64,000 nucleotides of DNA from Pneumocystis sp. 'macacae'. Its lineage: Eukaryota > Ascomycota > Pneumocystomycetes > Pneumocystales > Pneumocystaceae. Position 1 is the stretch's first letter. Each line of letters starts with the position of its first letter. The notes under the pieces were generated by a model. It saw nothing but the letters and a program-made list of their open reading frames with translations. It did no database searches and was not told where the DNA came from. Of this stretch, positions 4,041 through 63,793 are shown in pieces. The stretch is taken from positions 62,001 through 126,000 of the forward strand of contig CM030731.1 of NCBI GenBank assembly GCA_018127085.1, read 5' to 3'. The translations under genes and the position numbers were made by a program.

Positions 4041-4682
4041 TAAAATACTTAAGAGCTATGGCTCTTGCCAAAGCTTATTTATTTTAAATTATAATTGTAG
4101 ATTTTAGAAAATAATTTACTTCAGATTGTCGAAAACCTTAAGCCTGTTGTTTTGACAACAAATGTTGCCGTGGTGATTATCACGTGACATGAATAAAAGA
4201 TAAGTATGATTTTAAAAGGTTATAAAAGTATCGTAAAGTTGTTTTTAAAGTATTTTTATTTTTTACCTTTTTCTTGAGTATTAAATGTTTTCTAATTTTT
4301 TATTTATAAAATAAAATTATTATTATTATTTTAAAAATATTATGAAAAGTATTTTAATGGCTGTTATTAAATATTAGAGATATCTTATGTACAATTTATT
4401 AAAATAAATAACTAATTATTATGAGATATATATACATATATTGAACAGAGACATTTAAATCAAAGAAAATGATATTGCATTTTTAGTTTTTTGAAATATA
4501 AAATATATTATATGCCTAAAAAATAAAATAGAAAACATTTAAAAGTTTGTAAACTTTAAATACACTTTAAAAATTATGATGGTAATTATTAATCTACAAG
4601 AAATTAAAATTGTTATTTCCATTAATCTCTATTTTTAGATATGTTATTATTATAATTCCCATAATTAACATAAATTAGATTG
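4041..4682. promoter_or_regulatory. Upstream region of the kinesin-8 gene with a CACGTG element
   Basis: Noncoding gap upstream of the kinesin start. A TCACGTGAC element (CACGTG core at 4181-4186) lies about 140 bp before the ATG; this is the core bound by bHLH factors such as Cbf1, Pho4 or SREBP types. A GTTGCC half-site is at 4164-4169. The rest is AT-rich without a visible gene and includes the 3' region of the next minus-strand... SH3 gene's downstream side. Confidence 0.4.
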
Positions 4683-5446
4683 TTATTCATTTTTATCTTT
4701 TAAATTCAACTGAGAGTATTGGAAGTTTAATAAAGATGTTTCATTCTTTATAATATTATTTATGTTTTGATTTTCATTAAAATTATTTTGATTTTTCATC
4801 GCATTTTTTTGTAAATCATCTTCCATAGGAGATTCTTTAGTTTGTTCAATAGATATAGGCTGCCCCATATTGTTGTAGGTAAAAATAATACTAGAATCAT
4901 CCATTTGTACGTATTCTTCAGGAACAAGTCCTGTATCTCCTATTTTTTAATAAGTATATGATCTTATTTTTTTAAAATAAAACCTGTTAGAGGGTCAACT
5001 GCGACTAACCATCCCTGTTCATGTTTATATGAAATCCATACTTGTTGTCCTCTTACTAATGCAAATTCATTTTCATGTTCTGGTATAAAATCAAACAATG
5101 CAATTGCTTTAACATTTATTTCATTAAGTGATGTATCTATAGACTTATATGAATTTACATCATCAATGAACCTTCCATTCTCTATTTCGGAATATAAATG
5201 ATTATTTTTTGAAAATTCATCTTCAAAATCGAGATTTTGATCTGTGGATAATTCCATACATGAATTCAATGTACTTTTTAAAAAATCATATTCTAACGGA
5301 GACCTATAAAACCTAATATCATGATTCGGATAGGCGTAATCCCTATAAATTGTACGATAAATATCCGTTTGTAACCATTCTAGCGGTAAACTTTGTCGCT
5401 TTTCACATGAATTTTTCCAAGATTTTTTAATATCTTTATTTTTCAT
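4683..5446 (-). CDS. SH3-domain adaptor, Nbp2/Skb5-like
   Basis: Two exons joined by an intron at about 4940-4983; splicing turns the end of exon 1 into DPLTGDTGLVPEEYVQM. The central SH3 domain runs from VKAIALFDFIPEHENEFAL through QGWLVAVDPLTGD to GLVPEEYV, with the ALYDF-like, WLVA and PxxYV elements intact. In yeasts, Nbp2/Skb5 adaptors link PAK kinases and PP2C phosphatases in MAP-kinase pathways. The N-terminal ~100 residues and the Asn/Gln-rich C-terminal ~70 residues are low complexity and not recognisable. The family is inferred from SH3 resemblance and domain order. Confidence 0.75.
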
Positions 5447-6942: not shown

Positions 6943-9900
6943 ATGACCTACCAAAATAACTCTAGAACAAAAAATTTTGATCGTTCTATGGTAAATAGTC
7001 TTGAAGAAAAAACAAATATTATATACTATACAGCGTTTAAGCAGTTTCTTCAAGCAAGTTGTAGAAAAGGTAGAAATAAGCTAAAGTATAAATATTTTTA
7101 TGTTTAATGTTTTTGTAGAACTTGATTCTCGAAATACAAAAGCGCGGGAAAAACTTACATATCTTTCTAAACAGCAATTTTATGAGTTATCTACTGATGT
7201 CTATGATGAACTTATGCGTAGACAAACAAAAACCCTTGATGGTGTGTGTTTTATATACTTTTTATTGTATAATTAAATTCAATTTTTTCATTAGCATCTT
7301 TTTTAATACCAAACGAAACATTTCATCCAAAAAGAAATCAGGCACGACAAAAACTGTCTACTTTATCCATATCCCGATTTGTAGATTTATTGAGTGATGT
7401 GTCATTTGAACTTGAACGGAGATTTCCTGCATTGGTAAAAATAGATAATATTTTATATTTCGTATCTAAATATAAAAGACTGAGAATATTACGGTCTTAA
7501 AACACAATGAGCTGCATACTGGTCCGTATTCTCATTCTTTATCTGATACTACAAATACATTGTTAAATTCAGGACTCCCGGCACCGAAAACATTTCGTTC
7601 GGATACAATTGTTCCAAACAAATCAACAGTAATCGAGGAAGGCTCTGATTTAGATATTTCACCTGTAAAAACTCCTGCGTCGTCAAATTCATTTCGTATG
7701 GATAATTCAGCCTCTCAAGAATTACCAAAGAATTTAGATAAAAAAACTGAAAATTATAATTATAGATTGAAAGAAATAGATCATCAAGGTAACTTTTCCC
7801 GGTTTTTATTAATCAAAGGGATTTAATTTTTATTTTTAGAAAGTAAAATAAATATTAAAAAACTTGATAATGATAAAAATGAATTTATAGATGTATAATT
7901 TTGAAAAAATAGATAATGTCATGTACTAAAAATGTTAGGATGTACGAAAAAATGTAGTTCCAACAGATTACGAATATCGTATAGTTTCACTACAAAATAA
8001 AATTTTTTCTTTAGAATGTCAACTTAATGTTGTTAATTCAAAATTATCAGAATCGGAACAGGAACTTTTAATCATTAAAGTAAGAATGCATGCGTGTATG
8101 TGTTTATAAATTTAATAAAATAATAGAAAACATATGAGAAAAGTATCGGTGATGAAATACAGTTAAGAAAAACGCTTGAAGTTAATTTAAAGGAACTTCA
8201 ACAGGTATTATAATATTTTTATTTTAGCTTTGTTTTTTAAAGAAATTAGTCTAATAAAATTTTAAATGAAGAAATACAAGTCCTTAATAAAAAGCAAGAT
8301 AATTTAAACAAAAGTAATGAAAAATATCAATTGTTGCTTTCTAATTACGAAAAACTTAAATCTGAGATGGAAGAACAACAACGAGTCTGTATAAGCCTAT
8401 TCTATTTAGACTTTAATCGTTTATAGGTTACAAATAATGTTAAACGTGAAGCCAAAGAGTTTCTTGAAGAAATGAGATCTTTATCGGAGAAAGAAACAAG
8501 TTCTTGGCAGCAAATCGGGACATTGTCTAAACAAATATCTTTTCTTCAAGACGAAGTTAAAGAATGGAAAAATCAGGTATATAATTATATTAAATATTTA
8601 CATAATGCTAATACTTTCAGTATTCAAAAGCTAAATCTCAGCTTCAGAATTTAAAAGGTATTTAACTCTTGCATATATGCATGTGTGTATATAACATAAC
8701 GATACTAGCAACATCATTGTTTTCTGCTCAGTCTTTAAAACTTAAAGCTGATTATGAAAGTTATATTGAAGATGATGGAATAATTAATGATACTTCTTTA
8801 GCTGATTTCCAGGTAGCGATAGATGATCTTTTGCATGCTGGAAGGTTGTTTTTTGTTCCAATTTGTATCCAGACTAATGAAATAGATCATCAGAACAGAA
8901 AGGCGTACTCGAAGCCATGAAAGATGTAATTTTGTCAGTAAAATCAATAAATATGAATTTGGAGAATAATAAGCACATGAGTATATTCGATGATCCGCAA
9001 AAGGGTCCACTTATTTCAAAGTTAAAATTACGGATGTCTTCTACCGCAAATAATTTAATGATCGCTTCTAAAAATCATGCTCTCAACAAAGGGCTGAGTC
9101 CTATCAGTTTGTTGGATGCAGCAGCATTCCATCTCACAGCTACTATTATTGAATTGGTCAAAATCGTGAAACTAAGAACATCAGATGCTGCAAACCCGTT
9201 AGGAGATGAAAATGAAGAGCTTTGTGATATCAAAGAGCCGGATATCGATGCATTTTCGCCACTACAATGCAATCTAAGCACATTGAAAGACAGATCTGCG
9301 GAAACGCAGCTGCCGAGTCTCGACTTTTCCAGCACTTATTCAACAAAATCAGACACCTCGAAAATACCGAAAACCACTGTTTTAAAAACATTATTGGATT
9401 CCGATTTTGACAGCAACCTGCAAGACTTTAAGGTTAGGGGACCCCTGCAATGCATCCCAAGTAACAAAGCAGAATTTCTTAGAGAAACAAACAGAAGACA
9501 TTGTCGAACTAATACAGGGCCTTCTTTCATCCATAAGGGCCGATGCTCAGATAAAAAAACTCAAAGAACACATGACAAAAGCAATAACAATTGTCCAAAC
9601 CGTCGTCTCAAAAACCTTCCAAGTCATAGCCATAGAAAAAGACGAAAACCTGCGCGAAAAAATATCCACCACTGTAAACGGCCTCATGAACTGCTGCTCC
9701 AGATTCGAGGAGCTCTTCAGCGACAAAATCGAAAACATCAGCATCGACAAGTCCTTCAAGCAGAACCTCGCCGGCATCGCCTTCGACATTGCCAAGCAGA
9801 CAAAGGTACCCTCCCCTGCCCTCTCCCCTAACCCTAGCCCTTTCCCTTTCCCTCCTCCAACCCCAACCCTCTGCTCCAGCCCTAACCCTCATACCACCCC

Positions 9901-9970
9901 TAGCCCGCCACTTCGCTGACCCCCGCAGGAGCTTGTAAGGACAATAAACGGCGAAAACGAAAACACATAG
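6943..9970 (+). CDS. SPA2: Spa2-like polarisome scaffold
   Basis: Spa2 is the polarisome scaffold at growing tips and division sites. The N-terminus carries two GIT/Spa2-homology repeats: LDSRNTKAREKLTYLSKQQF with DVYDELMRR, then RNQARQKLSTLSISRF with DVSFELERR. A coiled coil follows (about 7960-8650). The conserved C-terminal part has GVLEAMKDVILSVKSI, SPISLLDAAAFHLTATIIEL and AGIAFDIAKQTK. About ten short introns are needed to keep the frame; the last (9806-9928) is unusually long and C-rich, with three AACCCT motifs. Codon choice changes along the gene: 4 of 25 codons end in G/C near the start but 22 of 25 around 9690-9760, although the protein stays Spa2-like throughout. The splice around 8655-8745 is uncertain. 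Confidence 0.88.
9806..9928 (+). repeat. Telomere-like AACCCT motifs in the last SPA2 intron
   Basis: The intron between AKQTK and ELVRTING is about 123 nt, far longer than its neighbours. It is almost pure pyrimidine on the plus strand and contains AACCCT at 9830, 9865 and 9884, two of them as CCTAACCCT. The acceptor is CCCCCGCAG with a CGCTGAC branch-site candidate just before it. Confidence 0.7.
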
Positions 9971-10058
9971 CAAGACACCCTCCGGGCCTGGCCCTACATA
10001 TATATACTGCACCACACCTATCACACTTCTACCATGCCTCTACTTCTAACCCATGCAA

Positions 10059-11106
10059 CTACACCGCACTCTGTGCACCCGGGCAGCCCGCCCCCCGTGC
10101 AAGCGTCCACAGCCCCCCAAACACATCCCCCTCTCCCCCACGCTCCTCCACCACCTCTGCCCTCTGGAACTCTGCAAACTCCCCATCGCTCCCTCCCTGC
10201 TCCTCTGTCTCCAGCAGGTCTCCCACACCGCCCCCCTCGCCCTCCGCAAACTCGTCGTACACCTCAAACACCCCCCGTGTGTCCCCGAACACCCTCTCCC
10301 CGGACACATCCTCGCTGTACGTGGCTCTCCGGGACACATCCGCGCCATGCACCTCGTCCCCGGACACCCCCACGCCACTGCACCCGCCGCCCACATATCT
10401 CTCGCGCACCGCCCGTGCCTGCCGCCGCGCCAGCCGCAGCGCCTCGCTGTCCTGCACAAGCGACGCCAGCTCCCCCGCCTTCGCCCCCACTGCCCGTCAG
10501 CCACGCCTCCCACTCCCCACCCACCATGTGCCCCCCGGTCCCGCCCCCCCGCATCCACATACTCAAACCCCCGCAGCACCCGCACCACCGACAGGTGCCC
10601 CCGCACATCCTCTGCCACCCGCTCCGACCCGTGCCGAACCAGATACTCCAGCAGCTGCAGCCCCTTGTACACCTGCCGCCACTCCCGCCCCGCCCGCCCC
10701 GTCACCCGCCCATAGACTGCCGGCCTGTCGCGTCAGTGCTGCTGTGTGTCCGCACCCACATGATCTCGTTGAACGCTGCACTGCCTGGTCACCACTGCCT
10801 CTCCCCGCCACTTACTAGCTGTGTGTTGCGTCTGCAAGCTCCTGCATCTGTGTCGAGCTTGCCCCCCACGGCTCGTTTGTTGTTGCGTCCCGGACCTTCG
10901 CCTCCATCTCGCTGTACTTCATGACCACTGTCGTCAGCCCTCTTCTCCTGCGCCCTACCGTTCTGTGCCCGCCGCAGCGCTGCCCGCACATCATAGACCT
11001 GTCTGCATCAGCTACGCACTCCCTCCGCCCCCACCGTCAGCTCCGTGACCCGCCGCACCGCCCGCCCAATTGCTGCCGGCAGCAGCGTCTGCCGGTCCCC
11101 GGCCAT
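10059..11106 (-). CDS. ENT3: ENTH-domain epsin, Ent3-like
   Basis: Epsin-type clathrin adaptor; Ent3 proteins act at the trans-Golgi and endosomes, binding phosphoinositides by the ENTH domain and adaptor ears by acidic-Phe motifs. The gene is hidden by very high GC and 30-60 nt introns. Starting at 11106, exons give TELTVYDVRAALRRAQNVVM, MEAKVRDATTNEPWGASSTQ, YAAFNEIMW, then EWRQVYKGLQLLEYLVRHGS, GFEYVDAGGRDRGAHV and RRQARAVRERYVGG, which follows the ENTH domain from end to end. The exon before EWRQVY is the least certain. The C-terminal tail has YDEF, GEFAEFQRA and DVFGGLW, resembling gamma-ear binding motifs. Only 53 bp separate its ATG from that of the cyclophilin gene. Confidence 0.85.
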
Positions 11107-11159
11107 GCTGCGCGCAGTCCGCTGCGCGCTCTTAGCCCCGCGCTGCGCTGCGGACACCA
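11107..11159. promoter_or_regulatory. Very short divergent promoter (ENT3/cyclophilin)
   Basis: Only 53 bp lie between the start codons of two divergent genes. The stretch is GC-rich and lacks an obvious TATA sequence. If both starts are right, the 5' UTRs are minimal or the promoters overlap the coding regions. Confidence 0.55.
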
Positions 11160-11783
11160 ATGGCAAACGTCTTCTTCGACATCTCCATTGGCGGCACCTC
11201 TGCCGGCCGCATTGTCTTCAAGCTCTACGACGACGTCGTCCCCAAGACTGCGGCAAACTTCCGTGCACTCTGCACCGGCGAAAAGGGCTTTGGCTATGCA
11301 GTATGTCTCCCGTCCCCCACACACTGACCACAGGGCTCGACGTTCCACCGCATCATCCCACAGTTCATGGTCCAGGGCGGCGACTTTACGCGGCACAACG
11401 GGTGGGTCTGTGTGTGTGGCGCCACTGACTGTGCAGGACAGGCGGGAAGTCCATCTACGGCGAGGTATGTGTGTGGGCTGTGCAGCGCTGACTGGCAGCG
11501 CTTCCCCGACGAGAACTTCCAGCTCAAGCACTCAAAGCCCGGGCTGCTGTCGATGGCAAATGCAGGCCCAAACACAAACGGGTCGCAGTTCTTCATTACG
11601 ACCGTCGTGACGTCGTGGCTCGACGGCAAGCATGTCGTCTTTGGGGAGGTTGTCGAGGGCATGGATGTTGTCAAGGTATGGCGCACAGAGAGGCGGCGCT
11701 GACGGCAGAAAGTCGAGGGCCACGGCAGCCAGAGCGGTGCGCCGAGCGCACGCGTGGTGGTGGAGCGGTGCGGGACGGTCTAG
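11160..11783 (+). CDS. CPR1: Cyclophilin A-type peptidyl-prolyl isomerase
   Basis: Catalyses cis-trans isomerisation of prolyl bonds and is the usual cyclosporin A receptor. Five exons separated by 33-35 nt introns encode a single cyclophilin domain of about 160 residues: [44 protein letters not shown] with the catalytic Arg, [17 protein letters not shown], and [13 protein letters not shown] with the drug-contact Trp. There is no signal peptide or targeting extension, so it is probably cytosolic/nuclear. Codon use is strongly GC-biased: 22 of the first 26 codons after the ATG end in G or C. Stop at 11781-11783. Confidence 0.96.
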
Positions 11784-11788
11784 CGGGC

Positions 11789-11802
11789 GTTGCCCGGGCA
11801 AC
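11789..11802. promoter_or_regulatory. Perfect RFX X-box palindrome
   Basis: GTTGCCCGGGCAAC fits GTNRCC-N2-RGYAAC exactly, inside an 18-bp perfect palindrome. It lies 6 bp after the cyclophilin stop and about 290 bp before RER1. RFX-family proteins (Sak1, Rfx1/Crt1 in yeasts) bind this consensus. Binding here is inferred. Confidence 0.55.
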
Positions 11803-11814
11803 GCAGAGCCGCAG

Positions 11815-12066
11815 TTGCATGTATGGCGCATACAACACGCATATACTCCGCACAGTGCATGTTCCCGCGTACACACGCACGTCCCTGTGCATGCCATGCA
11901 GTGCTGCACCAGCAGCCGCGCCGCCGGGTGCACGTGCACCGCGCGCACCCGCACGTGCACAGCGCACAGCATGCGCAGTGCAGCCGCATACACGCGCCAG
12001 CGTACGTGTCGTGCAACACAGCGCATATAGTACGCATATAGTACGCATACAGTGCGCATATACTGT
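11815..12066. repeat. Alternating purine-pyrimidine tract with an 11-bp tandem repeat
   Basis: The spacer before RER1 is dominated by GCAC, GCGC, ATGC and CATA steps, a composition prone to Z-DNA. At its 3' end an 11-bp unit is repeated four times with drift: GCATATAGTAC at 12023 and 12034, GCATACAGTGC at 12045 and GCATATACTGT at 12056. No credible gene fits, though the skewed composition leaves long open frames on both strands. Confidence 0.65.
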
Positions 12067-12092
12067 GCTAGAGCACAGACAGGGCGGGACGG

Positions 12093-12776
12093 ATGGATGC
12101 GGACGGGATGCCGCCTGAGACGCTGGCGACGATCTTCAGTGCACGGAGAAGCCGGCTTGGCCAGGTTTGGGTGGCTCGGGGGTCTACTGCTGACAGTGCA
12201 GCAGTACCAGGCGCTGCTGGACGGGGCGACGCCGTACAGGGCGCGGCGGTGGGCGGGGGCGCTGGGGCTGCTTGGGGTCTTTATGGTGCGGATTATTGTT
12301 GTCCAGGGATGGTACATTGTGTGCTATGCACTGGGGATCTATCTGCTGAACCTGTTTCTTGCGTTTCTGACGCCGAAACTGGACCTGTCGGTGGAGCAGG
12401 AAGTCGAGGACAACGAGGACAGTGGGGAGCGGCTGCCAGTGCGGCAGGACGAGGAGTTCCGGCCGTTTATCCGGCGGCTGCCGGAGTTTAAGTTCTGGTA
12501 CTCGGCAACACGGGCAACGGGGATAGCATTTGTGTGCAGCTGGATCCCGTGGTTCGACATCCCGGTCTTTGTATGGGGTAGGGCGGGGTGGGCAGGTGGC
12601 TGATGGGAGCAGTGGCCGATTCTGCTGATGTATTTTTGCATTCTTTTTGCATTTACGATGCGGAGACAGATCAAACATATGATCAAATACAGGTGGGGAG
12701 GGAAGGGAGAGGCAGGGCTTACAGTGGCAGATATGTGCCGTTTGACATTGGGAAGAAGCGGTTTTCGTCGAAGTAG
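12093..12776 (+). CDS. RER1: Rer1 Golgi-to-ER retrieval receptor
   Basis: Rer1 is a four-pass Golgi membrane protein that returns escaped ER membrane proteins. Four exons give a first segment MDADGMPPETLATIF, then YQALLDGATPYRARRW, a hydrophobic pair around VVQGWYIVCYALGIYLLNLF, FLTPKLDL, EFRPFIRRLPEFKFWYSATR, then after an intron beginning at the GTATGG following PVF, WPILLMYFCILFAFTMRRQI and KHMIKYRYVPFDIGKKRF. The YVPFDIGKK ending and FLTPK are family hallmarks. Length of about 185 residues is normal. Codons are GC-rich. The stop is 31 bp from the stop of the convergent ELMO gene. Confidence 0.95.
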
Positions 12777-12807
12777 GGTGGTGGGGGACGCGGGGCAGAA
12801 GAGGCGG

Positions 12808-14138
12808 TTATGGAGGGCATCTGGGGTCAAAGAGGCAGTTGCCGTGGTCGATGAGGGCGGTGGTTTTTTTCTTGAAGTGTTTTAGGCAGCGTTCGAAGTC
12901 GAGGACGGACTGGACTTTTTTTGCAGAGACCTGAAGCTTCCAGAAGTGGTGGAAGGAAATGAATGTATAGGCTGGGGATCAGTATGGAGGGGAGTGTGTA
13001 GAACATACAAAATAGATGCTTTAGTGTTTCGTCTACAGTTGTCCCGCAGTTGCAATGCTGAATAAAGAGCTTTTCAAGCCTGCTCTGGTTCATCAGCTCG
13101 ATGATGTATGCCAGAACATTTATAGCAGCGAGTGCAAAGGAATACCAGGGGAGGCTGGCGCTGCTTTGGTTTGAGCGGGACTCGGATATCATGATTCGTG
13201 TATGGTCGTTTCGTCTTAGTACGAAGTAGTGTAGCATCTCCAGCCCAAAGACACCTAGACGAGTAAATGAGTGGATGCAAAGACGAGACCTGCCCACCCA
13301 TGGATCTAAAGTCCGTGCTAGGATCGTTTCCCTGAAAACCCATCTAAGATGCTTAGTGGCATTTTATAAACCAGGTGTTGGAACCGTCACCCAATTTCTT
13401 TTGCTGTTTTGCGGCACACTTGCTGGGGCGATTGCTGCATCCCATATCTATGATCGTTAGAAGCGACATAAGTGTTTAGGGTCGTTGATTGCCTCATGAA
13501 ACATTTCCTGATTCTGGTAATATTCGACCTGTGTATTGCATTTTTGCATTATATTTTTTTTCTCTTTTTCAATACAAAAAATACACATAATTGAGTAGCG
13601 GAGACAAAGGTAGTGTTTGGACGGTTCTGTTTTCTTATAATCATATTTTATTTTCTTCTTCAATAAAATGGATGTCGCAACAGCATCGATAAAGTTAGCT
13701 TCTTCAAAGGAATTTAAACATCCTGCTCTGTACAACAAGTCTTTCCATTCACTATAAACAACTACTGACATAGACAATTCGATATCTAAAAAAGTTAAAT
13801 TTGCAGCAAAATATCAAGAATTTACAAATGCTCCATACTAAATCTCCTAGCTTCTTGTTTTCATCAGGATCTGAATTTTTTCGTTTTTTCCCTGCATATT
13901 TTACCAAAACATGTTCGTCCAGACATAGAAAAAAATCCAGAATCCTACAAATGGAAGTCTTTTTTGTAATAGCTCTATAAATAGCTTTATAAATTCTACG
14001 TATTCTCCAAATAATTTGATAGAAAGAATCCTTGAAAAAAACATCCCAAAAACTCTTCTTTTCCTGTTTTCTAGGTCTGCTATAAAATTCTCTTCTTCTA
14101 ATAATATATAGTAAAATTGAATCCGAAAATCTTATCAT
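12808..14138 (-). CDS. ELMO-domain protein
   Basis: The core MGFQGNDPSTDFRSMGGVFG LEMLHYF, read through an intron starting at the GTGGGC after ATGG, matches the ELMO domain, which in ELMOD proteins gives GAP activity on Arf-family GTPases and in Elmo/Lmo1 proteins partners Dock GEFs. Downstream exons give YSFALAAINVLAYIIELMN, HLFSYTFISFHHFWKLQVSA and a stop at 12808-12810. Upstream, NSKRNW precedes MGFQG across another intron, and exons back to an ATG at 14138 encode a basic N-terminus and SICRILDFFLCLD. The exon near 13440-13600 is uncertain. GC content falls steadily from the 3' to the 5' end of the gene. Small, ELMOD-like rather than Elmo1-like. Confidence 0.72.
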
Positions 14139-40525: not shown

Positions 40526-42224
40526 ATGGATGCTTTTTCAATTTTAGCAGGAGGAACCAATCTTAGGAAAAAGAAAATAGAAGAATTGAAAAAAAAAGGT
40601 GTATAACATGTATAACGTTTATATTTAAAAGAATTAACCCTTCTATCAAACAGATCAAAAAAAAAGTACGATAGATACAAAATTTGAGGAAAAAACCATA
40701 TTCTCCGTTTCTACAAAAGAAGAAATCAAGGACTTCCAACGGCTATTTCGAATACGTGTTTCTGGAGATAATGTTCCTGACCCAATTATGAGCTTTTCGG
40801 TAATGAATAAGCAACTTCAGTTTCCCAATTTTATCCTAAAAAATTTGAAAAAATATGGATTTGAAATACCCACTCCTGTTCAGATGCAAACAATCCCTAT
40901 CTCTGTTGCAGGACGAGATATATTTGTCTGTTCTCCCACAGGTTCTGGCAAAACATTAGCATTTATTATACCTATACTAATCGATCTGAAAAAACATTTG
41001 GATCATGGATTTCGTGCTCTCATAATCACACCAGTAAAAGAGCTTTCTAAGCAGGTATTTCCTACTTCTGTCTACTCTTTTGCTGATGATCAGATTTACC
41101 GAGAAATCAAACGGCTTACTTATGGGAAAAAATTCAAAATTTGCCATCTCCAGAGATCTACTATCTCTAATATTAAAAATTCTAAATACGACATTGTAAT
41201 ATCTACTCCCCAGATGGCATTAAGGGCTATTATTGAAAAAAAAGTAAACTACAGCAGGTAACGACTTTTTCATGGCTTATTCTGGCATTAAATCACACCA
41301 GTGTACGTCACCTTATCCTTGATGAAGGTGACCGACTCTTTGATCATGAATTTATCGAACATACATCCAAACTCATCGCATTTTTCTCTTCAAACGTAAA
41401 AAAATCATTATTTTCAGCTACAATACCTTCTAGCGTCGAAAACCTCATCCAATCCTTTATGGATCATCCTGTCCGCGTCATCATCTGGAAAAAGTTCGTT
41501 GCCCCTCTCTCTTTTTCTCTAACTTTCTACAGAGACACCGCCGTCGACACTGTCCATCAGGAATTGGTCCATGTTGGCTCAGAAGAGGGGAAATTGGTTG
41601 CACTCAGACAGCTTATCCACCAGGGTGGTCTCCTCCTTCCCGCCCTTATCTTTGTGCAGTCTATCCAGAGAGCCAACGAGCTATACAATGAGCTCAAGTC
41701 CGATACACTCAACATTGATGTCTTTCATAGCGACCGCACACAAACACAGCGTGATTCCCTCCTTCATCGTTTCCGCCAAGGCGAGCTCTTTCTTCTCATC
41801 TGCACTGACATCATGTCTCGCGGTATTGACTTCAAGGGCGTCGAACTTGTTATCAATTACGATCTCCCTCTTTCCGTACACAGCTATATTCACCGTATTG
41901 GCCGTACTGGTCGTGCTGGAAGGCCTGGCCGCGCCATCACCTATTTTTCTTCTTCCGACACTAAATATCTTCGAAGGTACTTCTTTTTACACCACTCCTC
42001 CCTTTAACTCTTAAAGTATTGTTCATGTTATGTTACGTTCTGGGTCCCACGTTCCTGCCTGGATGCTCCATCTCCTTCCCGCCATCTCCAAAAAGACCAA
42101 ACAGCGTCTCAAGCGTCTGCCTCCCTCCAGAGATCCCATCTCATCCCACCAATATACAACAAAGCTTCACAAAAACACTTCCTCTACACACGACGCTGCC
42201 GTTCGCACTTCACACCTGCTATAA
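40526..42224 (+). CDS. ROK1: DEAD-box-type RNA helicase Rok1 (DDX52)
   Basis: Helicase for 18S rRNA maturation. The N-terminus MDAFSILAGGT and VSGDNVPDPIMSF are Rok1/DDX52 marks. Helicase motifs are the Q motif PTPVQMQTIPI, I PTGSGKT, II DEGD (41321-41332) instead of DEAD, III SAT, IV ALIFVQSIQRANELYNEL, V CTDIMSRGIDFKG and VI HRIGRTGRAG. Introns include one after KELSKQ and one before VRHLILDEGD. The 3' half is GC-rich (17 of 25 codons around 41767-41841 end in G/C) against 7 of 25 around 40864-40938, but the protein is continuous. It ends TSSTHDAAVRTSHLL. Confidence 0.95.
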
Positions 42225-42619
42225 ACACTTCGTTCGCTTCAATTTGCCTCTATAGACTTTCAAAATATATATACTAGATACTCACAACCAACTCACTATT
42301 TGTATAATTGCTTGCTTAGTAGTTGTAACGACAATGTTTGACTACAGCCAGCGCCGTTACAATAACATTGCAATGATAACGTCTACTAACAATGTCTCAT
42401 GAGAACACCAAATACGCCAAACACATCCCATAGCGACAAATTCCACAACACTGTGACAACACGCCATGGCAACACACCACGGCAACATCACTGCATCGAC
42501 TCACTGAACCACACCACCCAAGATACCCTCCAAACACCCAGCCCACTGCACTGCCCGTCAACCACAGCCTAGCAAGCCATGTTATAGCCATACTTCACCC
42601 CCAAAAAGACCAGACACCG
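42225..42619. other. GC-richer spacer between ROK1 and ATP20
   Basis: Gap between convergent 3' ends, inside the second GC-rich block. It holds repeated short words such as CAACAC, CACGGCAAC and CCATGGCAAC (42463-42473), but I find no gene. Both 3' UTRs should lie here. Confidence 0.45.
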
Positions 42620-43000
42620 TTACACAGAATAGCCCACAAGGTGTCGCCGGCCAAGAACTTCTCCAAGCTTAAAAAACCCATATGCCTCAACCATACGCAC
42701 TCCAAGCCGGACCACAGAATCCCGTCCAAGCATCAGGTGTATCTTGTTCTTAGAAACACGTATCTCACGCCAGAATGCCTCAATCTCTGTCACCGTTGGT
42801 GGCTGAAGCCGCTCCTCCCTCCACACTGCCTTGGTCAGCTTCTCCTAACTGCTGTGCTACACACCCTGTCCTGCAATCTCACGTACAACCCGTGCATTAT
42901 ACTCAAATGACGCCCGAACACACTGCCATGTACGTGTCCAGTTCGACGCTCTTGCTACTGCCATTACTGTTTTAATACGCTGCACCGTTGCTCTCTCCAT
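42620..43000 (-). CDS. ATP20: ATP synthase subunit g
   Basis: Small membrane subunit of mitochondrial F1Fo ATP synthase that supports dimers and cristae. Exon 1 from 43000 reads MERATVQRIKTVMAVARASN, then RASFEYNARVVREIAGQ. An intron at about 42826-42864 leads to VWREERLQPPTVTEIEAFWR and the family ending YGFFKLGEVLGRRHLVGYSV. The last motif, GxFKxGExxGRRxxVGY, is the subunit g glycine/charged membrane helix. Total about 115 residues, the usual size. It is easy to miss because its exons are short and the region is GC-rich. Confidence 0.87.
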
Positions 43001-43027
43001 GTAGAACGTTCACCTGTCCCTGGCCAT

Positions 43028-43071
43028 AACCCTCTCCTAACCCTAACCCTTCCCCTAAAAGACCTAACCCT
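43028..43071. promoter_or_regulatory. AACCCT (telomere-like) boxes between ATP20 and RNR2
   Basis: AACCCT occurs at 43028, 43039, 43045 and 43066, the middle two in direct tandem. In fission yeast AACCCT boxes drive S-phase histone genes, and TTAGGG-type sites bind Tbf1/Teb1 factors. The cluster is in the divergent promoter of ATP20 and RNR2. Confidence 0.55.
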
Positions 43072-43219
43072 GTTCCGGTTACACTGCCCAACTAATACAG
43101 GAAGAGGGCAAAAAGAACTGAACACAGACAATAAATGCACAGAAAATGTGTACCATTTGCCTATAAATCCTGTGTCTGCACTGGTCCTCTAGATTCCCTG
43201 TACAAGATAAATGGATTGG

Positions 43220-43324
43220 ACGCGAGGGCTGGGTTAAGGACTGGGGCTGGATGTTACTGGGGCAACTATTCGCGTTGATGTATGTCGCGTGCACCACGTA
43301 AATATAAAGCGACACGCGGACGCG
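43220..43324. promoter_or_regulatory. Cluster of five MCB-core sites upstream of RNR2
   Basis: ACGCG cores occur at 43220, 43314 and 43320 on the plus strand and as CGCGT at 43271 and 43286. All are within about 130 bp of the RNR2 ATG, with a TATAAA at about 43303. MBF reads this core and drives ribonucleotide reductase genes in yeasts. Confidence 0.72.
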
Positions 43325-43345
43325 ACGACAATAAAACGAACAAAC

Positions 43346-44670
43346 ATGCAAGAACAAACAATATGCAAAGTAAAGGAAATAAATGGAGAAGATAAACTAA
43401 AATAAACAGGAAATAGAGGTGGTGAATGGATCATTAGGATTGGATGAGCTTTGTGCTGCAAGAAGAGCAAAAGAAGCGCTGATCGATATGAAGAAACAAG
43501 CAAAGAAGGAGATTGAGGAAAAAGAGAATGAGCGGGAGGAAGAACCACTATTGATGGAAAATCGGAAGAGATTTGTGCTTTTTCCGATCAAATACCACGA
43601 GGTATGGGCAGGGAAGGGAAAAATGAGGGGGGATGTTGATGGAGACAGATCTGGCAGATGTACAAGAAAGCAGAAGCGTCGTTCTGGACGGCAGAGGAGA
43701 TTGATCTGTCAAAGGATCTGCATGATTGGGACAAGAAGTTAAATGAAGACGAACGATTCTTTATTTCACATGTGCTTGCATTTTTTGCGGCGTCGGATGG
43801 GATTGTAAATGAGAATCTTCTGGAGCGGTTCAGCAATGAGGTACAGGTGCCAGAAGCACGGTGTTTCTATGGATTCCAGATCATGATGGAAAATATCCAC
43901 TCGGAGACGTATTCGTTACTGATTGAGACATATATCAGGGATCCGGTGCAAATGGCGTTTCTTTTTGATGCCATTGAGACAAGTATGTGGTAAAGGAGTA
44001 AAAGTATGGGGTCTAATGGAGATAGTTCCAAGCATCAAATTGAAAGCTGACTGGGCGCTTCGATGGATTGCAGATGAACGATCGACCTTTGCAGAGCGGT
44101 TAGTAGCGTTTGCTGCTGTAGAAGGTATTTTCTTTAGCGGATCATTTGCATCGATTTTCTGGCTCAAAAAGCGGGGTCTGATGCCAGGTCTGACGTTTTC
44201 AAACGAACTCATTTCGCGTGATGAGGGACTTCACACAGACTTTGCTTGCCTGCTTTTTAGCCATCTTCGCAAGCGACCCAGCAAGGAGACTATCCAGGCC
44301 ATCATTGTCGAAGCAGTTAGCATTGAACAGGACTTTTTGACGTCCTCACTACCCTGTCCTCTTCTGGGGATCAATGCAGGGCTCATGAAACAATATATTG
44401 AGGTGTGTTGTTACATTCTCAAGGTATTTGGTCATTCTTAACACTAGGCAGTTTGTAGCCGATAGGCTTTTGGTTGCTCTTGGGAATAACAAATACTATA
44501 ACGCAATCAACCCATTTGATTTCATGGAAAATATTTCACTGCAAGGCAAAACCAACTTCTTTGAAAAGCGTGTCTCGGATTACCAGAAATCTGGTGTCAT
44601 GGCCAGCATTAAAAAACATGATTACGATCCAATCGATGCACATACATTTTCTCTCGACGAAGAGTTTTAG
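43346..44670 (+). CDS. RNR2: Ribonucleotide reductase small subunit
   Basis: R2 subunit with the di-iron centre and tyrosyl radical that makes dNTPs with R1. Exon 1 is 24 nt (MQEQTICK); splicing at GTAAAG...AACAG leads to [20 protein letters not shown], which sets the start. Conserved blocks are [56 protein letters not shown] (radical Tyr in CFYGF), [20 protein letters not shown] and [19 protein letters not shown]. The C-terminus FSLDEEF is the peptide that docks on R1. Four introns, including one before FVADRLL. GC-rich codons; MCB and AACCCT boxes lie upstream. Confidence 0.96.
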
Positions 44671-62174: not shown

Positions 62175-63793
62175 ATGCGAGAATCCAACTTTTGTTCTCC
62201 ATCTCAAAACCGCGCAGCGGTGGCTATTACATCTGCTTTATATGATAGACGAGCACTTGATTGCACAGCAACATTACCTCTTGTTAATTCGTTATCACAT
62301 CTTTCATTTTTAACATCAACATCATCACGTATACGAGAGATATTAACAGAAGATGAAGGTCTAGAACGTCTTGTGCGTATTCTTCAGGAAAGACGAAGAT
62401 CAGGGCGTCTAGAAGCATGGAAATGGCAGCTTGCGTTTCAGTGCGTAGTTAATATTGGTATTCGAGGATCAGAAAGAATTCGTACACGAGTAGTTGAAGC
62501 AGATATGGTTCCAGTAATTACAACAATTCTTGATGGGTTTTTACACCGAGTTGATCTTGTACGTAAAGCCCCTGGACAAGAAGGATCAAGCAGAGGAAAT
62601 ATTGGGCGGCAACTGCATGTTTCAGCGGCAACAATGGGAGCAGAAGGGGCTCCGGATGATTTCTTTGTAGAAGGAGCATTTGAGACGCTAGAAGCGCCTT
62701 TGGAAGTAAGTGCAGGGGGTTCTCAGGGAACAATAGGTTCTGGTGGATTCATAATGGAAAGCAGTATAGGAGCATACGGAAGAATTTCAGAAGATATTCA
62801 TGTTTCAGAAATGGAGATAGAAACAGAAAGGGAAGGGCAACAAAATGAGGGACAAAGCCAAGGACGACAAAGGATAGTAATAGAAAGCATAAGACAACAA
62901 TCGGGTATGTTTGGAGCTGATTCAGATGATACAAATTCGGATGATGTTGGGTCGATAAGTCGTACAAGGTTACAGCCACTCCAGCATCCATCGATAGAAT
63001 TTCCAATGCTTCAAGACTCAGTTTTGAATTTTGAGCCTGAAATATCCGAAGAGGGTTCAATGTCTGTTACTCTTGGAACAACAGTAGAAGGTCATGATCA
63101 AACTTCAGAAGGAATAGAAGAACAATCGGCACTTTTGTCACACGAATATTCATTCCATTCTATTGAAAACGGAACCTTTTCAAGTACAATTGACCAGCAT
63201 AATGAAAATGAAGTGCACTTATCAAGTGTTATACATGAAAACCACGAATTCACAGCACCTCCATCATCACAAACACCGGTGCAACCCACATCTCTAGATT
63301 CTCAGCATTTTTTTTTCAAAAATGAAGATAATGTTGTTTTTTGTTTGCAGTTATTAGCATATATATCCAAATATCCTCAACTTAGATCTTATTTTCAGAA
63401 TTCACATGATATTCCGAAACTTCGATATTATCATACCGGAGATGCAAATGACAATAAAGCTATACCGATAAATGTGTTTTCATTGGTTGAACGATTTACA
63501 TTACGTATTCATCCTACAGAAATTCAGTATTGGGCAGGCGTTATTATGAGAAATACATGCCGAAAAGATGAATCCAAAGGTGGTATTCGTCAATGTGCAT
63601 ACATAGATTGTGGAAGATGGGAAACATTTAATAGACAATTTGCAAAATGCAGGAGATGCAGGTATTTTAATAATCTATACAGTTTACCATAACTTATAAA
63701 TTAATTAGAAGAACAAAATATTGTAGTAAGCAATGTCAATCTAGAGCATGGCCTGGACATCGATGGTGGTGTAGAGAACGGAGCACTAATTAA
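62175..63793 (+). CDS. MUB1: MYND zinc-finger protein Mub1 (samB)
   Basis: Mub1/SamB partners the Ubr2 ubiquitin ligase and affects morphogenesis. The N-terminus MRESNFCSPSQNRAAVAITS, LDCTATLPLVNSLSHLSFLT and QLAFQCVVNIGIRGSERIRT with VVEADMVPVITTILD match the family closely. A long acidic, low-complexity middle follows. The C-terminal MYND finger is CAYIDCGRWETF, FAKCRRCR and, across the only intron, KYCSKQCQSRAWPGHRWWC. Stop at 63791-63793. About 520 residues. Longer exons than most genes here. Confidence 0.94.

What the first reader, a model, noticed from the sequence alone, without database searches (positions are those of the whole stretch)
8900..13400. GC-rich island whose base composition changes inside intact genes (island 1)
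GC rises along SPA2 (4 of 25 codons end in G/C near the start, 22 of 25 near the end), peaks over ENT3, cyclophilin and RER1, and falls again along the ELMO gene toward its 5' end. Protein similarity and splicing continue across the change, so this is a regional mutational or conversion process, not a foreign insert. GC-biased gene conversion at a recombination hotspot is the leading inference.
Basis: partly seen in the sequence, partly recalled or inferred. Interest (0 to 1): 0.8.

Follow-up and report, generated by a model that had tools for sequence, protein, structure and literature searches.

The report
Mirror-polarised GC islands with telomere-like words
A very AT-rich lung fungus of macaques carries widely spaced spots where, for about 2,000 letters on either side of a central point, ordinary genes have been rewritten so that the DNA strand running away from that point is full of G and often of telomere-like words, which points to a strand-specific process acting on new DNA made outward from a recurrent break or start site.

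Summary
Window 9512-13214 exceeds 45% GC (peak 66.5% per kb; non-island mean 25%) across five ordinary fungal genes. It is not unique: 17 of 20 stretches fetched around GC runs hold similar islands; 33 candidate sites (18 read, all islands) lie >=72 kb apart on C1-C16. The + strand is C-rich left of the centre and G-rich right of it, in 19 of 19 islands with the centre set by GC alone. At four-fold sites 0.8-1.6 kb out, the strand running away from the centre has G 0.76-0.79, C 0.04 (background 0.07 each), whatever the gene direction. Non-coding parts hold degenerate telomere words on that same strand (GGGTTAGGG 53 versus 2). Classical strand-symmetric GC-biased conversion fails as the whole explanation. 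Best reading: fixed meiotic break hotspots, where the repair strand copied outward gains G, sometimes as telomerase-like additions; the hotspot identity is inferred, not shown. Main rival: mutagenic replication origins, with the same polarity. Centromeres, foreign DNA and transcription-coupled skew are disfavoured.

The parts
9512..13214 (.). Island 1: zone with 1-kb GC above 45%
11361..11362 (.). Centre: GC-skew flip point (skew-defined 11362; midpoint of the GC zone 11363; cumulative-skew minimum 11361)
9512..11361 (-). Left arm: + strand C-rich, so the - strand (5'->3' away from the centre) is G-rich; skew -0.40
11362..13214 (+). Right arm: + strand (5'->3' away from the centre) G-rich; skew +0.22
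8881..9805 (+). SPA2-like exons (VBS_C3G9, GIT1_C domains), gene pointing toward the centre; four-fold sites become C-rich (C 0.64, G 0.03, n=39, in the GIT1_C segment)
9826..9834 (-). Telomere-like word (CCCTAACCC on +, G-strand away from the centre) in a putative SPA2 intron
9880..9888 (-). Second telomere-like word, same orientation, same putative intron
10529..10916 (-). ENT3 (ENTH domain, two segments; PMAC_000692), gene pointing away from the centre; four-fold G 0.92 (n=38) in one segment, but A 0.53, G 0.33 (n=15) in the other
11175..11771 (+). Cyclophilin domain, spans the centre; both C (0.44) and G (0.30) raised
12199..12696 (+). RER1, pointing away from the centre; four-fold G 0.73, C 0.06; protein accelerated in P. 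macacae
12998..13346 (-). ELMO/CED-12 segments at the right edge, gene pointing toward the centre; four-fold GC only 0.39-0.50
41302..44345 (.). Weak island 2 of the window (zone above 40% GC), same polarity, centre about 43099, with AACCCTAACCC-type words about 60 b left of it

Best explanation
Each island marks a fixed place where new DNA strands repeatedly start at a centre and run outward for up to about 2 kb; most likely a meiotic double-strand-break hotspot repaired by copying from the other chromosome. Shown: GC rise, one mirror polarity in the 19 islands measured, independence from gene direction, rise of G alone on the outward strand, telomere-like words on that same strand peaking 0.5-1.5 kb from the centre. 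Inferred: (1) Spo11 breaks cluster within a few hundred bases of the centre. (2) The invading end copies 0.5-2 kb past the break, so the nascent 3' end points away from the centre. (3) When it is displaced it is sometimes extended by telomerase or another G-adding step, or its mismatches with the old strand are settled in favour of a G on it and a C opposite. (4) Repeated over evolutionary time this replaces other bases by G on the outward strand at neutral sites and leaves degenerate TTAGGG units in introns and spacers.
For: 19 of 19 islands (18 strong, 1 weak) share one polarity with the centre set by GC alone. Four-fold sites in 11 islands, 66 exon segments, 2874 sites: genes pointing away G 0.683/C 0.085 (n=1608), genes pointing in C 0.619/G 0.098 (n=656); with GC-only centres 0.662/0.104 and 0.618/0.112; 800-1600 b out G 0.76-0.79, C 0.04; 0-200 b G 0.41, C 0.28, as if break sites scatter by a few hundred bases. 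TTAGGG 73 outward, 7 inward (skew centre), 74 and 9 (GC centre); GGTTAGGG 60 seen, 3.7 expected under an order-3 Markov model; of the eight GGG-WWW-GGG words TTA has 53, no other more than 5. Resected 3' tails at a central break would point inward, so outward 3' ends fit nascent strands. Placement is even: 13 gaps between 24 candidates on 11 contigs, minimum 72 kb, P about 0.005. A TP6A_N (Spo11-type) domain is encoded. G/W ratio shifts about 50-fold, C/W only 2.7-fold. [quoted passage not shown] PMC9001825 passages), so strand-directed repair has a precedent.
Against: No recombination data. In human hotspots the strand-asymmetric excess of C>N and A>N lies on the forward strand, where left of the break the 3' tail is (PMC7615360 passages); if that reading is right, the polarity there is opposite to this one. 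Outward G is equally what a replication origin would give. TTAGGG is absent from 3 of 18 strong islands, balanced in 1 and reversed in 1 (C5:149), although the G drive is present in the four of these five whose exons I counted, so the two effects may be separate. The drive varies: per island G 0.38-0.80, C 0.02-0.17 on the outward strand. T, part of TTAGGG, is more depleted than A at four-fold sites, so coding changes are not copies of the telomere template. Of 8 contig ends read, 4 hold 1-2 TTAGGG/CCCTAA and none ends in a clean array, so the unit of the real telomeres was not confirmed.
Confidence: 0.48

Rival explanations
1. The centres are constitutive replication origins. Leading strands leave the centre in both directions, and the first 2 kb are copied in an error-prone way that enriches G on the leading strand.
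For: Polarity fits (G on the strand leaving the origin). Human constitutive origins have a ~4-kb mutagenic domain with strand biases that invert at the origin, an excess of T>G, C>G and T>C, and a model that reproduces raised GC and skews (PMC9645720, passages and section 6). In S. pombe, telomere-like repeats near late origins bind Taz1 (recalled).
Against: Almost no skew remains beyond the island: averaged over 18 islands the flank 3.5-6 kb out has outward-strand G 0.156, C 0.148, whereas forks should leave an asymmetry further out. 33 strong candidates in 8.27 Mb is few for yeast-like origin spacing (recalled), though only strong ones were counted.
Confidence: 0.27
2. Classical GC-biased gene conversion at hotspots: mismatches settled in favour of G:C whatever the strand.
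For: Strong local GC rise at synonymous sites and in introns, fading over about 2-3 kb, even spacing.
Against: G and C do not rise together; G/C changes 18.6-fold on the outward strand. P. macacae-only changes in RER1 include Q>E and T>S, most simply C-to-G steps that a W/S bias cannot drive (two cases). It does not predict oriented telomere words.
Confidence: 0.08
3. A strand-specific form of mismatch or base-excision repair in meiotic heteroduplex: whatever faces a G on the donor-copied strand is cut out of the 3'-tail strand and replaced by C.
For: Explains any base to C on the inward strand, including transversions. UDG-type (2 loci) and HhH-GPD glycosylase (3 loci) domains are encoded; no Y-family polymerase domain was found (IMS and IMS_C), which disfavours a Rev1 route. 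This is a version of step 3 of the best explanation without telomerase.
Against: Why the donor strand is spared is not explained, and it does not make telomere words. Glycosylase families were not resolved to TDG or MutY.
Confidence: 0.1
4. Transcription-coupled skew or R-loops at strong bidirectional promoters (CpG-island-like), or TTAGGG sites for a promoter factor such as Teb1/Tbf1.
For: In 2 of 11 annotated islands the centre lies between divergent genes (H3/H4-like pair; G-beta and redoxin), and others lie in or near strongly expressed kinds of gene (cyclophilin, ribosomal S23, ribosomal L44). Teb1 binding TTAGGG is recalled.
Against: Skew follows the side of the centre, not the gene: sense strand +0.78 in outward and -0.73 in inward genes. 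In 6 of 11 islands the centre falls inside a gene (within a Pfam segment in four, between two segments of one gene in two). Telomere-like words are rarest at the centre (1 in 0-250 b, 28-31 per 250 b at 500-1250 b).
Confidence: 0.04

Closest known systems
Recombination-hotspot GC peaks from GC-biased gene conversion
   Same: Local GC peak at neutral sites over a few kb, spread over genes, evenly placed foci
   Different: Strand-polar: only G rises outward from the centre; telomere-like words on the same strand
Strand-asymmetric mutagenesis at human meiotic hotspots (PMC7615360, passages)
   Same: About 2 kb on each side of a centre, mirror asymmetry
   Different: Apparently opposite polarity; rare mutations, no compositional island or telomere words in the passages read
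Mutational domains at human constitutive origins (PMC9645720, passages and section 6)
   Same: About 4 kb, polarity flip at the centre, raised GC, outward G expected
   Different: Here four-fold GC goes from 14% to about 80%; almost no skew beyond the island; telomere words
Interstitial telomeric sequences
   Same: Internal TTAGGG-like units
   Different: Degenerate, dispersed, mostly of one orientation relative to a shared centre, inside a wider G-drive zone
Pneumocystis regional centromeres and P. macacae Mis12 peaks (PMC10327204)
   Same: A few kb, over active genes; P. macacae Mis12 ChIP gives 4-6 peaks per chromosome that 'tend to occur in GC rich regions' (section 9)
   Different: Centromeres of P. 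murina and P. carinii average 3.9% lower GC and are one per chromosome; islands reach 4 candidates on a contig

Membership tests
Classical GC-biased gene conversion hotspot | GC raised at neutral sites in a local peak | tested here: met
   four-fold GC 0.14 background, about 0.80-0.83 at 0.8-1.6 kb
Classical GC-biased gene conversion hotspot | Strand-symmetric: G and C rise together | tested here: not met
   G 0.76-0.79, C 0.04 on the outward strand; 19 of 19 islands polar
Classical GC-biased gene conversion hotspot | No drive between G and C alleles | tested here: inconclusive
   C at four-fold sites falls to 0.04 from 0.07; Q>E and T>S in RER1, two cases
Classical GC-biased gene conversion hotspot | Raised recombination and W-to-S transmission bias | not testable with these tools
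   no population data
Meiotic DSB hotspot (any repair bias) | Meiotic break enzyme in the genome | tested here: met
   TP6A_N domain at C12:219969-220082, 52.3 bits, over cut-off; that this is Spo11 is recalled from the family
Meiotic DSB hotspot (any repair bias) | Even spacing (interference) | tested here: met
   13 gaps, minimum 72 kb, P about 0.005; 6 of those 24 places are runs not read; a weak island lies 32 kb from island 1
Meiotic DSB hotspot (any repair bias) | Breaks or Dmc1 at the centre | not testable with these tools
   none
Mutagenic replication origin | Polarity flip with G on the strand leaving the centre | tested here: met
Mutagenic replication origin | Replication asymmetry continuing along the replicon | tested here: not met
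   flank at 3.5-6 kb: G 0.156, C 0.148; nothing further out was measured
Mutagenic replication origin | Initiation at the centre | not testable with these tools
   none
Regional centromere | One per chromosome, GC lower than the genome (as in P. murina and P. carinii) | tested here: not met
   1-4 candidate islands per main contig; GC 64-71% in those read; PMC10327204 section 9. A single island could still coincide with a centromere
Foreign insert | Island genes with a best match outside the lineage | tested here: not met
   three proteins searched: RER1 best hits P. jirovecii and P. murina; ENT3 only itself; OMP decarboxylase of the C8 island best hit P. jirovecii
Transcription/R-loop skew | Skew follows the coding strand | tested here: not met
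   +0.78 outward genes, -0.73 inward genes
Interstitial telomeric sequence | Internal telomere-type units above chance | tested here: met
   GGTTAGGG 60 seen, 3.7 expected; GGGTTAGGG 53, other GGG-WWW-GGG words at most 5
Interstitial telomeric sequence | Same unit as the organism's telomeres | tested here: inconclusive
   of 8 contig ends, 4 hold 1-2 TTAGGG/CCCTAA, and none ends in a TTAGGG array

The most novel reading that the evidence does not exclude
A strand-specific 'G drive' unlike GC-biased conversion: at fixed hotspots the free 3' ends of strands copied outward from the break are open to telomerase or another G-adding activity, and the added or substituted G wins over the old strand, so that in dozens of places over millions of years essential genes are rewritten toward G outward from the hotspot and telomere units seed their introns. 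The islands would then be a readable fossil map of where, and in which direction, repair synthesis ran.
Probability: 0.3. Interest if true: 0.93.

Novelty: new variant of a known kind. Interest (0 to 1): 0.85.

Why it matters
GC peaks at hotspots are usually explained by a strand-blind bias in mismatch repair. Here is a natural genome in which the bias is almost purely strand-specific, mirror-symmetric about a centre, very strong, and accompanied by outward-pointing telomere words. That gives sequence evidence on the polarity of DNA ends at recurrent initiation sites, would make recombination hotspots (or origins) locatable from sequence alone in a genus for which reliable continuous culture does not exist (PMC10327204 abstract), and warns that codon use, protein trees and selection scans in Pneumocystis can be distorted in such islands (RER1: 17 P. 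macacae-only changes against 5 P. jirovecii-only).

Tried and rejected
Regional centromere: rejected as a class (1-4 candidates per main contig; known centromeres GC-poor). RNA gene cluster: Rfam found nothing at gathering score in 9 of the 17 fetched island loci (90 kb) or in the window; ARAGORN (bacterial code) gave one tRNA-Cys call in 17 loci, inside a UCH gene, probably spurious. A shared centre motif: none evident; the commonest centre 8-mer is in 11 of 18 islands, the commonest flank 8-mer in 13 of 18. Sequence homology between islands: 36 short non-self blastn rows, of which I printed 20; these include one pair at histone-like genes and otherwise short matches at 73-90% identity that look low-complexity or telomere-like; no shared element seen. 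Rev1/translesion model: the outward strand would have to be the template, and no Y-family polymerase domain was found; these searches go exon by exon, so absence is not proven. DNA_pol_B matches fall at three loci. REV1_C gave no match but its control rang nowhere, so it says nothing. Promoter centres: I first thought that centres sit at promoters; the layout does not bear this out (2 of 11 between divergent genes, 6 of 11 inside a gene). Runs of 16 or more G/C bases: 70 (31 + 39 forward); after dropping the contig-end 23-mer (8 places), three isolated pure poly-C/G runs (C6:520.7k, C10:17.6k, C10:306.6k) and C19:8060, and merging runs within 10 kb, 33 interior places on C1-C16 remain; 18 were read and all 18 are islands, 15 were not read. 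Of the 20 stretches fetched, 17 hold an island; L018 and L019 (poly-C runs) and L021 (near a contig end) do not. In the RER1 count one further P. macacae-only residue (the last of the typed query, at an exon edge) was dropped, so 17 and not the 18 printed. Literature: no search found polar islands in Pneumocystis or strand-polar GC conversion; the library is open-access papers only.


Full report
What the window is. It is C12:62001-126000 of an 8.27-Mb, 19-contig genome. A query made from the island's ENT3 exons has one hit, PMAC_000692 of Pneumocystis 'macacae', 100% identical over the part aligned (65% of the query), on a 467,563-base contig; C12 has the same length. The published P. macacae assembly is 8.2 Mb in 16 scaffolds, made from Nanopore and Illumina reads (PMC7940399 passages); the copy here has 19 contigs.

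The reported island is real. GC climbs from about 27% to 66.5% per kb and back. The 49 one-kb windows outside the risen zones have mean 0.252, sd 0.045 and max 0.347.

It recurs. Runs of 16 or more G/C bases occur at 33 interior places on C1-C16 after merging and after leaving out contig-end elements, three isolated poly-C/G runs and one place on C19. Of 20 stretches fetched around 18-base runs, 17 hold an island; with island 1 of the window that makes 18 strong islands. They reach 64-71% GC in a sliding kb, with 3.4-6.6 kb above 45%. On the 11 contigs of known length, 24 candidates leave 13 gaps, the smallest 72 kb; random placement does this in about 0.5% of 20,000 trials. Six of those 24 are runs that I did not read, and the weak island at 41-45 kb of the window lies only 32 kb from island 1.

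The islands are polar. Left of the centre the + strand is C-rich, right of it G-rich, in the 18 strong islands and the weak one. With the centre set from GC alone (zone above 45%; 40% for the weak island) the sign is the same in 19 of 19; in 18 of 19 the difference exceeds every one of 2000 block shuffles (the weak island is the exception, 0.46 against a maximum of 0.51). Averaged over 18 islands, C is 0.44 and G 0.20 about 1 kb to the left, and the mirror image to the right, with background approached at about 3-4 kb.

The polarity belongs to the side, not to the gene. I located exons by Pfam in 11 of the 18 strong islands. Over 2874 four-fold sites in 66 segments, genes pointing away from the centre have G 0.683, C 0.085 (1608 sites at 200-2200 b) and genes pointing toward it have C 0.619, G 0.098 (656 sites); GC-only centres give 0.662/0.104 and 0.618/0.112. 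On the outward strand G is 0.789 and C 0.045 at 800-1200 b, 0.758 and 0.037 at 1200-1600 b, and 0.41 and 0.28 within 200 b of the centre; single islands range from G 0.38 to 0.80 and C 0.02 to 0.17. Background in eight open frames of the window is A 0.393, C 0.071, G 0.072, T 0.464 (905 sites). So G replaces A and T alike while C does not rise: purines reach about 0.9, which transitions alone should not give (inference). Relative to W, G is raised about 50-fold and C 2.7-fold. Runs of six or more G number 158 on the outward strand and runs of six or more C number 1, at 500-1800 b; 208 and 9 with GC-only centres over the whole zones.

Telomere-like words. On the outward strand at 100-2300 b, 13 of the 14 most over-represented 8-mers are permutations or near variants of TTAGGG repeats (the fourteenth is CGCATATA): GGTTAGGG 60 seen, 3.7 expected from an order-3 Markov model of the same DNA. 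GGGTTAGGG occurs 53 times outward and 2 times inward; none of the other seven GGG-WWW-GGG words exceeds 5; the one-step neighbours GGGCTAGGG and GGGTTGGGG have 18 each. TTAGGG is 73 outward and 7 inward. Per island, outward exceeds inward in 13 of 18, is equal in 4 (three have none) and is lower in 1. Flanks have 8 and 5 in 90 kb. Matches to a looser pattern peak at 500-1500 b from the centre and are nearly absent within 250 b (162 outward, 13 inward over all distances). In six islands Pfam-marked coding DNA has 1 TTAGGG (either strand) in 8.1 kb, and the rest 21 in 19.6 kb. Two words lie in a putative SPA2 intron of island 1. Of 8 contig ends read, 4 carry one or two TTAGGG/CCCTAA, some with TTATGG or GTAGGG words, but no clean terminal array, so identity with the true telomere unit is not established.

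History. RER1 of P. macacae has 17 residues unlike those shared by P. jirovecii and P. murina, against 5 such P. jirovecii-only residues (one edge residue dropped; by hand, two-sided binomial about 0.02). Simplest paths include T-to-G (S>A, V>G, F>W), A-to-G (K>R, E>G, I>V) and C-to-G (Q>E, T>S) on the outward strand (inference from the codons). So the drive at this locus seems to have acted after the split of the two species, about 62 million years ago by PMC7940399 (passages). In contrast, the OMP decarboxylase at the C8 island has GC-type residues in P. jirovecii too (GARP 0.36; 0.40 in P. macacae; 0.24 and 0.28 in two distant relatives, over overlapping but not identical stretches), suggesting that some islands are older; this rests on one protein.

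Mechanism. Telomerase-type units on the outward strand mean that 3' ends pointing away from the centre were exposed (inference). Resected tails of a central break point inward, so they are not the ends concerned; strands copied outward past a break, or leading strands leaving an origin, are. A TP6A_N (Spo11-type) domain is encoded; UDG (2 loci) and HhH-GPD (3 loci) domains are present; Y-family polymerase domains were not found. I favour break repair because the skew ends with the island, because spacing resembles hotspot interference, and because GC peaks are typical of hotspots. The human meiotic hotspot spectrum seems to have the opposite polarity (PMC7615360 passages), and the human origin spectrum resembles this one (PMC9645720), so the origin rival stays serious. 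How a G on the outward strand wins (added, misinserted, or preferred in repair) is open; strand-directed mismatch resolution has a precedent in mouse cells (PMC9001825 passages). Centres are not tied to promoters in the 11 annotated islands: 2 lie between divergent genes, 6 inside a gene.

Limits. About 218 kb of the genome outside the window was read, chosen by GC runs, so weak islands are undercounted. No DNA of other Pneumocystis species was at hand. Pfam segments are domain cores, and a few span short introns. Gene names near centres are the Pfam labels. The P. macacae Mis12 peaks that 'tend to occur in GC rich regions' (PMC10327204 section 9) show that others have seen GC-rich regions here; in the abstract, passages and two sections I saw neither polarity nor telomere words in them are mentioned. 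PMC5698624 (passages) was consulted for the usual hotspot model.

Noticed in passing
G000 contigs C3:306, C4:553169, C8:480287, C10:472864, C13:6509, C15:374631, C16:10593, C16:338686 (run starts): An identical G/C-only 23-base element near contig ends, its orientation reversed between left and right ends; it recalls the msg recombination junction element (CRJE), not tested.
   Followed up: no
window 41302-44345 and about 62329: A weaker island with the same polarity flip (centre 43099), and a tentative third flip at 62329 (score 215; opposite flips not at an island edge reach 149 in the window), suggesting a continuum of strengths.
   Followed up: partly
whole genome G000: No Y-family polymerase domain (IMS, IMS_C) found and DNA_pol_B at only three loci: translesion polymerases may have been lost.
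   Followed up: partly
L025-L032 (contig ends of C2, C12, C14, C16): By eye, some left ends are C-rich and the right ends G- or purine-rich, the same outward-G polarity as the islands.
   Followed up: no
window 12022-12062 and island flanks: CGCATATA-type words (CGCATATAGTA tandem x3.7 here) are over-represented in islands (19 seen, 1.5 expected) and in flanks (8, 1.6); strand preference not tested.
   Followed up: no
window 10293-10384: A degenerate 30-base tandem repeat (3.1 copies) in the part of ENT3 downstream of the ENTH domain.
   Followed up: no
L002 about 4471-5300: The C2:196 island centre lies between two divergent histone-fold genes (H3/H4-like pair).
   Followed up: partly
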